From Elusimicrobia bacterium LH_S2 (GTDB lineage: Bacteria > CG03 > SLGR01 > JAGXOG01), in contig JAGXOG010000005.1 in the NCBI GenBank assembly GCA_023660015.1, positions 1 to 48,640 on the forward strand: a DNA stretch of 48,640 nt, read 5' to 3'. The notes under the pieces are model-generated. The model worked only from the letters and a program-made list of their open reading frames with translations. It was not told the DNA's origin and did not search any database. The position numbers were made by a program, and so were the translations under genes. Position 1 is the first letter of the stretch. Every line of letters begins with the position of its first letter. Shown here piece by piece: positions 46,087 through 48,640 of this stretch.

Positions 46087-46251
46087 GAAGCGTCAAGAAA
46101 AACAGTCTAAATGACTGTTTTTTAGCGAAGCACACTCGTTTGAAGCGTCAAGAAAAACAGTCTAAATGACTGTTTTTTAGCGAAGCACACTCGTTTGAAG
46201 CGTCAAGAAAAACAGTCTAAATGACTGTTTTTTAGCGAAGCACACTTGTTC
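46087..46251 (+). repeat. Three tandem 55-bp repeats, each with a terminator-like palindrome
   Basis: Copies start at 46087, 46142 and 46197. The first two are identical and the third differs only near its end. Each holds a perfect stem: AAAAACAGTC (46098-46107 in copy 1), loop TAAAT, GACTGTTTTT(T). With A and T runs on both sides the hairpin can stop transcription from either direction. It lies between truA on + and tRNA-Leu on -, where a two-way terminator is expected. Confidence 0.88.
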
Positions 46252-46276: not shown

Positions 46277-46361
46277 TGGTGCCGAAGGTGGGATTCGAAC
46301 CCACACAGGAGAACCTACACGGTCCTGAACCGTGCGCGTCTGCCAGTTCCGCCACTTCGGC
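46277..46361 (-). tRNA. tRNA-Leu (anticodon CAG)
   Basis: On the - strand the acceptor arms GCCGAAG and CTTCGGC pair fully, followed by A and an encoded CCA (46277-46279). The anticodon stem CACGG/CCGTG holds the loop TTCAGGA with anticodon CAG (46325-46327), reading CUG. The T arm is GTGGG-TTCGAAT-CCCAC. The extra long variable arm expected of tRNA-Leu is present. Length 85 nt with CCA. Confidence 0.95.
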
Positions 46362-46993: not shown

Positions 46994-47896
46994 ATGAAAG
47001 ATATTTTAATAACCGGGTCTAACGGTTTTATCGGGAGTCATCTTGCCGAAAGATTGATTGATGAAGGCCATAGGGTCTTTTGTATGATAAGAAAGACTTC
47101 GGATACTACATATTTGAAGGGATTGAATATAGAATACACTTATTGTAATTTTATGATTCCTGACACACTTCCCAGCGCTGTTGAAGGCAAAGATGAAATA
47201 TATCATCTCGGAGGTGTCCTCAGAGTGGCAAATAAAGAGCGATTTTACGATGTAAACAGTTCTGGCACCCGCAATCTCGTGAATGCGGTTAATAAGTATA
47301 ATCCGGATATTAAAAAATTTGTATATGTTTCTTCGCAGGCCGCCGCCGGTCCTGTGGGGAAAGGACCGGTATCTGATTACGGCAAGAGCAAAAAGATGGC
47401 TGAAAATGCAGTAAGAGAAATTAAAAATTATGTTATAGTGCGTCCGGTTCCAGTTTACGGCCCACGAGATAAAGATTTTTTAGCTCTATTTAAGATGGCC
47501 CGCAGTGGAATATTTTTAAAGCCCGTCCAATCTGGAAAATTGAGTTTTATACACGTAAAAGATTGTGTTGAGGGGATTGCTTCCACTATGCCCGCAGAAG
47601 AAAAATTTCTAAGTGACGGTAATGTCTATAGCTGGCAAGAAGTTGCAAATATTCTGAAAAAAGTTATAAAGAAAAGAGTGCACATTATAGTTTTGCCTGT
47701 TTTTTTAATGAAATTAGGGGGGGCTATAGGTACAACAGCATCTAAGGTTACGGGCAAGCCCGTAATTTTAAATAGTGACAAGGTAAGAGAAATGTTAGCG
47801 GATTGGGGGGTTAATGTTAATAGTAAGGCCGGCTATAGTTTATATGACGGTTTTTTGGATACATTCGACTGGTATAAAAAACACGGGTGGTTATGA
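46994..47896 (+). CDS. NAD-dependent epimerase/dehydratase (extended SDR)
   Basis: A 300-aa SDR. NAD site ITGSNGFIGSHLAERLIDEG, VYVSSQAAAGPVG (catalytic Ser region), SDYGKSKKMAE (Tyr-x3-Lys) and RPVPVYGPRDKDFL. This is the sugar-nucleotide or sterol-dehydrogenase-like branch; I cannot say which substrate. It is coupled to the dolichol-kinase-like gene (1-nt gap). Its stop overlaps a further ATG at 47893 that opens a truncated frame. Confidence 0.88.
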   Translation: MKDILITGSNGFIGSHLAERLIDEGHRVFCMIRKTSDTTYLKGLNIEYTYCNFMIPDTLPSAVEGKDEIYHLGGVLRVANKERFYDVNSSGTRNLVNAVNKYNPDIKKFVYVSSQAAAGPVGKGPVSDYGKSKKMAENAVREIKNYVIVRPVPVYGPRDKDFLALFKMARSGIFLKPVQSGKLSFIHVKDCVEGIASTMPAEEKFLSDGNVYSWQEVANILKKVIKKRVHIIVLPVFLMKLGGAIGTTASKVTGKPVILNSDKVREMLADWGVNVNSKAGYSLYDGFLDTFDWYKKHGWL

Positions 47897-47916
47897 GTAA
47901 GGAGATAACAATATAA
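47893..47916 (+). pseudogene. Possible stub of a truncated downstream gene
   Basis: ATG at 47893 overlaps the SDR stop by 4 nt, a coupling seen often between operon genes. The frame reads MSKEITI and then stops. The next 120 nt code for nothing recognisable before the mobile-element end. This looks like the first codons of a gene whose body was lost. Confidence 0.3.
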
Positions 47917-48040
47917 AAGTCAAGTGAAGTTAAATAATTCAAAAAAGACATAAATCTCCTGTTTCCGCTGAAACGGATTTTAAAAACAGATATAAACATT
48001 AGAACTTTGACAATTAAATAACGCATACAATTAAAAACAT
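47917..48040. other. Gene-free junction between host DNA and the mobile element
   Basis: AT-rich, with no convincing frame. A short hairpin TCCG-CTGAAA-CGGA is followed by ATTTTAAAAA near 47965-47990 and may terminate the SDR transcript. The element's end must lie here or at the start of the structured region, but I see no inverted terminal repeat or target duplication. Confidence 0.35.
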
Positions 48041-48262
48041 TTGCGAGAAGGGTAGTTGGGCATCAAAAGTGCTCCCCGGTGAATCTCAGTATATAATAAC
48101 CCTGGCGATACGGACTTCCCTGAAAAGAGGGAGAGGTCGAACAAACTATCCGAAATTAGCTGAGAAGGGAGGGTATCGAAACTCCTTACCGAAGTTGTCC
48201 TGATAAAAGGACAGAGCTTAAGGAAAAATGTCGGATTACCCTCCTTCTCGGCAAACAGATTC
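48040..48262 (-). ncRNA. Strongly structured non-coding region: candidate IS110-type guide (bridge/seek) RNA
   Basis: Located directly 3' of the recombinase gene. The main stem pairs 48162-48175 with 48237-48249 (GAGAAGG-AGGGTA on the - strand, one bulge). Inside it, 48183-48188 pairs with 48219-48224 (TCCTTA/TAAGGA) and 48196-48201 with 48208-48213 (TGTCCT/AGGACA). These leave an internal loop of 7 and 5 unpaired bases. A second element pairs GATA 48107-48110 with TATC 48147-48150 and TCCCT with AGGGA, again with unpaired bases between. A third pairs AGGGT near 48050 with ACCCT near 48100. Stems with internal loops are the form of guide RNAs in the IS110/IS1111 family. Confidence 0.45.
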
Positions 48263-48296
48263 AATTGTAGTGTTAAATAATTAATCATAGATTTAG

Positions 48297-48640
48297 TTAT
48301 TTGAAATTAGGATTTAATTTTACATTAAATTTATTCTCAATATCTTTTTTAATTTTATTTAAATAATTATCTTCGGAAACTAAAAGATTCGAAGAAAAAT
48401 TAGACAGTTTTTTGATAATAGTTTTATAGCAGGAAACAATGGACTCTTTTTCATTAAGGTTAAGATAATCTCTTACAGTAGGTGGATTGAAGAAAGATTC
48501 GGACTTCATCATGGCAAGAGATACTCTTACGAATTTGGAGCCAACAGCGAAGTTGACACAGCGAGGATGTTTGCCTCTATCTAAGAGTCTTTGACCGAAG
48601 GCAGCAAAATAAGGGCATCCTTTGTTACCTCTGGATTTTA
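48297..48640 (-). CDS. IS110-family transposase, C-terminal part (5' truncated by window edge)
   Basis: On the - strand an open frame enters from the window end and stops at 48297, about 114 residues. The key stretch reads SRGNKGCPYFAAFGQRLLDR, then GKHPRCVNFAVGSKFVRV, then SLAMMKSESFFNPP. This matches the end of the Transposase_20 domain of IS110 recombinases, where R-G-N, F-x-x-x-x-x-R-L-x-x-R-G-K, A-V-x-x-K-x-x-R and M-x-K-x-x-x-x-F recur in this order. An extra Lys/Asn-rich tail of about 55 residues follows. The DEDD N-terminal domain would lie beyond the window. The internal ATG at 48512 is not the start. Confidence 0.6.
   Translation of the reverse strand, partial: KSRGNKGCPYFAAFGQRLLDRGKHPRCVNFAVGSKFVRVSLAMMKSESFFNPPTVRDYLNLNEKESIVSCYKTIIKKLSNFSSNLLVSEDNYLNKIKKDIENKFNVKLNPNFK

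What the first reader, a model, noticed from the sequence alone, without database searches (positions are those of the whole stretch)
48040..48262. Candidate bridge/seek RNA downstream of an IS110-like recombinase
The 250 bases 3' of the recombinase are non-coding but rich in nested stems: a 13-bp outer stem, a 6-bp middle stem and a 6-bp apical stem with an internal loop of 7/5 bases, and a second stem-internal loop-stem element beside it. Guide RNAs of IS110-family elements have this form, with loops that pair to target and donor DNA. In the IS1111 branch the RNA lies downstream of the recombinase, as here. The position, strand and loop design fit, but the identity is inference.
Basis: partly seen in the sequence, partly recalled or inferred. 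Interest (0 to 1): 0.78.

Follow-up and report, generated by a model that had tools for sequence, protein, structure and literature searches.

The report
Guide RNA targeting gene start sites
This is the guide RNA of a jumping gene: its two short guide stretches spell out the ribosome-binding site and start codon of bacterial genes, which explains where the jumping gene inserts and why its relatives keep landing at gene starts.

Summary
The window ends inside the transposase (C-terminal 113 aa). A homologous full-length copy in the same genome has the DEDD and Transposase_20 domains. Comparing the copies gave the element ends (CT|GGTATATAAA ... TTGACTTTTATATTGTTAT|CT) and the target: CAT-N5-7-CT-CCTT, the reverse complement of Shine-Dalgarno (AAGGAG) plus start codon. 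The RNA's first loop carries CAUUUUUCCU and GUAAGGAG. Together they match the rpsP-khpA junction 16/16. That site is occupied in this genome and uninterrupted in a same-order relative. In 54 distinct guide-target pairs from distant homologues, guides covary with targets (0/10,000 and 0/3,000 shuffles), and 28/52 sites abut a divergent start codon. There the RNA lies upstream of the gene; here it lies downstream, yet with IS110-type guide order. So the identity is supported, but the 'IS1111 branch' label is not. IS900 has the same published target motif (CATGN6TCTCCTT), so start-site targeting itself is known; the guide-RNA explanation for it was not found in the literature held here. An unproven extra: the left end may carry a replacement ribosome-binding site.

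The parts
48297..48638 (-). C-terminal 113 aa of the IS110-family transposase; frame runs off the contig end
   Evidence: 79% identical over 71 residues to the homologue on C56, which has DEDD_Tnp_IS110 and Transposase_20
47905..48296 (-). 3' non-coding region and right end of the element
   Evidence: parts of it repeated at eight other places in this genome; flanks diverge after the CT core
48038..48256 (-). structured bridge RNA region
   Evidence: folding z -3.41 on this strand, -4.96 on the other; guide matches. RNA ends not mapped
48162..48249 (-). target-binding hairpin: 13-bp outer stem, two guide strands, apical hairpin 48196-48213
48221..48230 (-). left target guide CAUUUUUCCU (core CU at its 3' end)
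   Evidence: 10/10 identical to the left half-site plus core at the khpA insertion
48182..48189 (-). right target guide GUAAGGAG
   Evidence: 8/8 complementary to CTCCTTAC at the window's own site and at rpsP-khpA
48085..48151 (-). probable donor-binding part: right donor guide UUAUAUACUGAG (48085-48096) complementary to left end CTGGTATATAA with one extra base; weak left donor guide UUGUU (48140-48144)
   Evidence: sequence comparison with the ends; inference
47903..47926 (-). right terminus CACTTGACTTTTATATTGTTAT plus CT core (47903-47904)
   Evidence: nine copies aligned; joined to the left end gives TTGACT-17 bp-TATATA
47897..47904 (+). right half of the target: GTAAGGAG, the Shine-Dalgarno of the displaced downstream gene, directly after the epimerase stop
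   Evidence: sequence; same motif at other copies
46994..47896 (+). NAD-dependent epimerase gene upstream of the insertion site
   Evidence: Pfam Epimerase E 3.2e-28

Best explanation
It is the bridge (seek) RNA of an IS110-family insertion sequence, transcribed in the sense of the transposase from its 3' non-coding end. [quoted passage not shown] The second part reads the element's joined ends. The transposase then joins element to target at CT. Because the target spelled out is CAT-N-CT-CCTTAC, the element is sent between the Shine-Dalgarno sequence and the start codon of host genes, with the transposase antisense to the gene. Shown here: family, ends, target class, guide-target identity, covariation in relatives. 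Inferred: transcription, circular intermediate, RNA binding and catalysis, by analogy with IS621 and ISEc11.
For: Transposase family. Ends and target from nine right ends and five left ends. Guides match the rpsP-khpA site 16/16, joint score 18 against a maximum of 17 in 5,000 shuffles. Orthologous rpsP-khpA uninterrupted in G005, and khpA with intact AAGGAGG in G002. Guide-target covariation in 54 homologous pairs (left 5.80/8 against 3.54, sd 0.19; right 6.29/7 against 5.21, sd 0.11). Compensatory changes in the homologues' RNA. Start-codon adjacency 28/52 against 10-18%. Junction promoter TTGACT-17-TATATA.
Against: The plus strand folds better than the minus strand. The covariance model of the relatives' upstream RNA does not detect this RNA. 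Only one complete RNA copy exists, so no structural covariation was testable for this element itself. The left donor guide is weak. The C56 transposase has Glu where all other aligned relatives have the first catalytic Asp. No expression data.
Confidence: 0.93

Rival explanations
1. The functional RNA is made from the plus strand, antisense to the transposase; guide order and end asymmetry would then look like IS1111.
For: Plus strand folds better, z -4.96 against -3.41; one C-A mismatch in the outer stem of the minus strand becomes U-G on the plus strand.
Against: In relatives the covarying guides are in the transposase sense with the same order, left guide then right guide, target part then donor part. 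The junction promoter points in the transposase sense. No known IS110 or IS1111 guide RNA is antisense (own knowledge).
Confidence: 0.05
2. A decayed guide RNA: once functional, but the copies here are no longer active.
For: Asp-to-Glu change in the only full-length transposase; truncated copies on C63, C74 and C75.
Against: Several copies have near-identical ends, and the guides in the window copy still match occupied sites exactly. The window copy's N-terminus is not on the contig. This rival concerns activity, not identity.
Confidence: 0.2
3. A structured region with another role (attenuator, terminator, transposase mRNA 3' structure), the guide matches being chance or a by-product of Shine-Dalgarno-like sequence.
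For: AAGGAG-like hexamers are common and occur elsewhere in the same RNA.
Against: 0/5,000 shuffles reach the joint match; guides sit on opposite sides of one loop; homologues covary; no terminator-like site in the region.
Confidence: 0.02

Closest known systems
IS621 and its bridge RNA (IS110 group; PMC11208160, PMC11208158)
   Same: transposase family, CT core, left guide before right guide, target part before donor part, discontiguous right donor guide
   Different: RNA downstream of the transposase here; transposase at least 444 aa; target is the Shine-Dalgarno/start-codon region
ISEc11 and other IS1111-group seekRNAs (PMC11187229)
   Same: RNA in the downstream non-coding region
   Different: guide order reversed; no 11-13 bp subterminal repeat; transposase much longer than 330-350 aa
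IS900 of Mycobacterium avium subsp. paratuberculosis (IS110 family; PMC8141618)
   Same: target motif CATGNNNNNNTCTCCTT, practically the target found here
   Different: different bacteria; its guide RNA was not examined here and no paper found here describes one
Bacillota IS110 elements found here (L078, L099, L124 and relatives)
   Same: homologous ends (RE CTTGACTTTTAATAGTTAGT|CT; LE CT|CGTATTATA), frequent start-site targets, covarying guides
   Different: RNA upstream of the gene; the core is the other CT of CTCCTT, so the Shine-Dalgarno stays next to the start codon

Membership tests
IS110 family (wide sense) with bridge RNA | DEDD (RuvC-like) plus Transposase_20 domains | tested here: met
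   on the homologous full-length copy; Ser-Gly motif present, first Asp replaced by Glu. The window itself holds only the C-terminus
IS110 family (wide sense) with bridge RNA | non-coding RNA with loops matching both halves of the target | tested here: met
IS110 family (wide sense) with bridge RNA | second loop matching the element's joined ends | tested here: inconclusive
   right donor guide matches over 8 nt plus core, left donor guide only 5 nt
IS110 family (wide sense) with bridge RNA | junction of ends creates a promoter | tested here: met
   TTGACT-17 bp-TATATA by joining the ends; activity not tested
IS110 family (wide sense) with bridge RNA | RNA bound by the transposase and needed for recombination | not testable with these tools
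   needs experiment
IS110 group (narrow sense) | left (bottom-strand) guide precedes right (top-strand) guide | tested here: met
   order as in PMC11208160
IS110 group (narrow sense) | RNA upstream of the transposase | tested here: not met
   it is downstream; exceptions of this kind are reported in PMC11187229
IS1111 group | RNA downstream of the transposase | tested here: met
IS1111 group | subterminal inverted repeat of 11-13 bp, extensions 7 bp left and 3 bp right | tested here: not met
   only ATATAAA (7 bp) is shared, with the shorter extension on the left (sequence)
IS1111 group | top-strand complement precedes bottom-strand match | tested here: not met
   order is reversed on the transposase-sense strand
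IS1111 group | transposase of 330-350 aa | tested here: not met
   at least 444 aa
start-site-targeting elements such as IS900 | insertion at CATG-N6-TCTCCTT | tested here: met
   CAT-N5-7-CT at the left ends, CT-CCTT at seven of nine right ends; one left end lies inside a coding region

The most novel reading that the evidence does not exclude
The element not only uses its guide RNA to insert between Shine-Dalgarno and start codon, it also brings a replacement. Read towards the host gene, its left end carries AAAGGAGGAAGC followed by a hairpin of about 42 nt that ends just before the host remnant and the start codon. The hairpin would bring the element's own Shine-Dalgarno near the start codon, so that genes such as rpsM and khpA stay translated after insertion.
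Probability: 0.25. Interest if true: 0.75.

Novelty: new variant of a known kind. Interest (0 to 1): 0.52.

Why it matters
It supplies a mechanism for an old observation, that IS900-like elements insert at translation start sites: the address is written in the guide RNA as a copy of the Shine-Dalgarno sequence, spacer and start codon. Such a guide is a generalist address, present at many genes in each genome, unlike the unique or repeat-element sites of the studied systems. It gives a directly testable prediction for IS900 and for many gut Bacillota. It also shows that IS110-type guide order and a downstream RNA can occur together, so RNA position alone should not be used to assign elements to IS1111.

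Tried and rejected
A covariance model built from 27 upstream RNAs of relatives (R1) does not detect the window RNA: the RNAs share layout, not detectable sequence-structure homology. Rfam gave nothing. No close relatives of the transposase were found in genome contigs or viral contigs. The same-genus genome G001 has no transposase match and gave no DNA match for the rpsP-khpA region. Scanning the window for further sites like the guide target gave no clear excess over shuffles, 12 against 8.8. Considered and set aside: group II intron, IS605/TnpB-type RNA, TIGR-Tas (NCBIfam hit only for distant relatives and below its cut-off), and an antisense guide RNA (kept as a rival). IS900's own RNA could not be examined: no IS900 sequence was obtained. 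The nearest branch in the transposase tree (L140, L165, L096, L158; support 87/95 with a long-branch warning) also seems to have a structured downstream region, but its targets were not resolved.

Full report
WHAT IS IN THE WINDOW. The contig ends at 48640 inside a minus-strand frame of 113 aa (48297-48638), followed by 392 non-coding bases and then the epimerase gene 46994-47896. The protein fragment alone has no Pfam match. It is 79% identical over 71 residues to a 444-aa protein on contig C56 of the same genome, which carries DEDD_Tnp_IS110 and Transposase_20, passes NCBIfam's 'IS110 family RNA-guided transposase' cut-off and matches IS621 in the PDB. Rfam has nothing.

ENDS AND TARGET. The right end occurs at nine places in this genome. 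Six read TTATATTGTTAT-CT-CCTT (the window, C51, C74, C45, C48, C75), one TTGT-CT-CCTT (second copy on C63), and two differ after the core (first copy on C63, and C130). Four of five left ends read CT|GGTATATAAARAAGAG; C48 has TT|GG. Directly left of them, in transposase orientation, stands CAT at 5-7 nt. On the other strand this is the start codon of a host gene: rpsM (C45), khpA (C36), a nitroreductase-like gene (C56) and a helix-turn-helix gene (C48). The fifth (C59) appears to lie near the 3' end of a coding region (gene names are my reading of the translations). The target is therefore CAT-N5-7-CT-CCTT, the reverse complement of AAGGAG-N5-7-ATG, with CT as shared core. The transposase always ends up antisense to the gene that is separated from its Shine-Dalgarno.

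ONE INSERTION SEEN FROM BOTH SIDES. The right flank on C48 is the 3' end of rpsP and the left flank on C36 is the start of khpA, neighbours in many bacteria (established knowledge). Joined at the core they read ACTACGAGTAAGG-AG-GAAAAATGAAAGAC. In a genome of the same order (G005) rpsP-khpA is uninterrupted with CAAGGAGGAGAAATG; in another (G002) khpA is preceded by AAGGAGGAATGATG with rpsP shortly upstream. This fits insertion without loss or duplication beyond the core.

GUIDES. In the minus-strand RNA the two sides of the loop between the 13-bp outer stem and the apical hairpin read CAUUUUUCCU (48221-48230) and GUAAGGAG (48182-48189). The first equals left half-site plus core of the khpA site over 10 nt. 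The second is the exact complement of core plus right half-site of rpsP-khpA and of the window's own site, over 8 nt. Overlapping at CT they spell CATTTTTC-CT-CCTTAC, 16/16 with the rpsP-khpA target. Dinucleotide shuffles reach a joint score of 17 at most, against 18 observed (0/5,000). The right guide also matches 7 nt at C74 and C45. In the second half UUAUAUAC-UG-AG (48085-48096) is complementary to the left end CT-G-GTATATAA with one extra RNA base, like the discontiguous right donor guide described for IS621 (PMC11208160). The left donor guide (UUGUU) is weak.

RELATIVES. No close homologue was found. At 25-31% identity there are hundreds, mostly Bacillota; 80 from genome contigs and 15 from viral contigs were kept. 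Their ends are homologous: RE CTTGACTTTTAATAGTTAGT|CT against CTTGACTTTTATATTGTTAT|CT here, LE CT|CGTATTATA against CT|GGTATATAA. Their RNA lies upstream of the gene. In 54 distinct pairs the left guide matches its own left half-site at 5.80 of 8 non-core positions, against 3.54 (sd 0.19) for shuffled pairings, 0/10,000. For 38 pairs the right guide gives 6.29 of 7 against 5.21 (sd 0.11), 0/3,000. The shuffles do not correct for relatedness; but the L084 group shows a wholesale change of target with the guide changed to match (AAATTACT in both). 28 of 52 sites abut a divergent start codon, against 10% at random positions and 18% at other CTCC positions. Eight of 22 predicted pairs of these RNAs show compensatory changes. 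In L008 (same order as the window's genome) the target reads CATCTATTTTTCT-CCTTTT and its upstream RNA contains AAAAGGAG, the exact complement of CTCCTTTT (read, where the locus is listed as L138 too by an error of coordinates shared with L008).

STRAND AND GROUP. Sense transcription is favoured: in relatives the covarying guides are in the transposase sense, left guide first, target part before donor part, and the same layout results here. Joining the ends gives TTGACT-17-TATATA pointing into the transposase. The plus strand folds better, which I cannot explain and record as counter-evidence. By guide order, short subterminal repeat and protein length it is IS110-type; by RNA position it resembles IS1111. 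Siddiquee et al. note IS110-type elements with a downstream non-coding region, so the position has precedents.

WHAT IS KNOWN ALREADY. Bridge and seek RNAs are known (PMC11208160, PMC11187229). IS900 has the published motif CATGNNNNNNTCTCCTT (PMC8141618). Searches combining IS900 with bridge RNA, or IS110 with Shine-Dalgarno or ribosome binding site, returned nothing that makes the connection; the library holds open-licence papers only. The addition here is the link: the guide RNA spells the start site, and this holds across many relatives.

HYPOTHESIS, NOT SHOWN. Towards the host gene the left end of C56 reads AAAAAAAGGAGGAAGC, a 15-bp hairpin, then CAG and the host remnant. The hairpin keeps its shape in the C36/C45 variant with changed sequence. 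A 42-nt piece covering most of it folds better than 499 of 500 shuffles, and AAGGAGG is expected in 1.4% of shuffled left ends. Two copies have GGATG instead of GGAGG. A replacement ribosome-binding site would explain how an insertion before rpsM is tolerated. The hairpin could equally serve end recognition.

LIMITS. The genome is a fragmented assembly, 67% complete by the tool's estimate, in which element copies break contigs; only one insertion could be paired from both sides. The only full-length transposase has Glu for the first catalytic Asp, so activity is open.

Noticed in passing
L005:1338-1544 (contig C56 of the same genome): Left end read outward has AAGGAGG, a 15-bp hairpin and then the host start codon: possible replacement ribosome-binding site. 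It also holds an intrinsic terminator facing the transposase (L005:1416-1394, minus), between the junction promoter and the gene.
   Followed up: partly
L005 transposase, motif PIEVAK: First catalytic Asp of DEDD is Glu in this copy; all aligned relatives with a residue there have Asp.
   Followed up: partly
window 46087-46250: Three near-identical tandem copies of a 55-bp unit (GAAGCGTCAAGAAAAACAGTCTAAATGACTGTTTTTTAGCGAAGCACACTCGTTT), each with an internal hairpin (AAAAACAGTC...GACTGTTTTTT), next to a tRNA-Leu (46277-46361, minus).
   Followed up: no
L084, L085, L108, L111, L120, L126, L130 left ends: Group whose target and left guide both read AAATTACT instead of CTCCT: natural retargeting away from start sites.
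   Followed up: partly
L140, L165, L096, L158, downstream of the transposase: Nearest branch to the window's transposase also seems to have a structured downstream region with an AGGAG-containing strand; targets not resolved.
   Followed up: partly
L078, L124, L148, L153, L163 left ends: Small hairpin near the left end with CUCUCC in its loop, complementary to a Shine-Dalgarno; it might pair with the transposase's own Shine-Dalgarno and control it.
   Followed up: no
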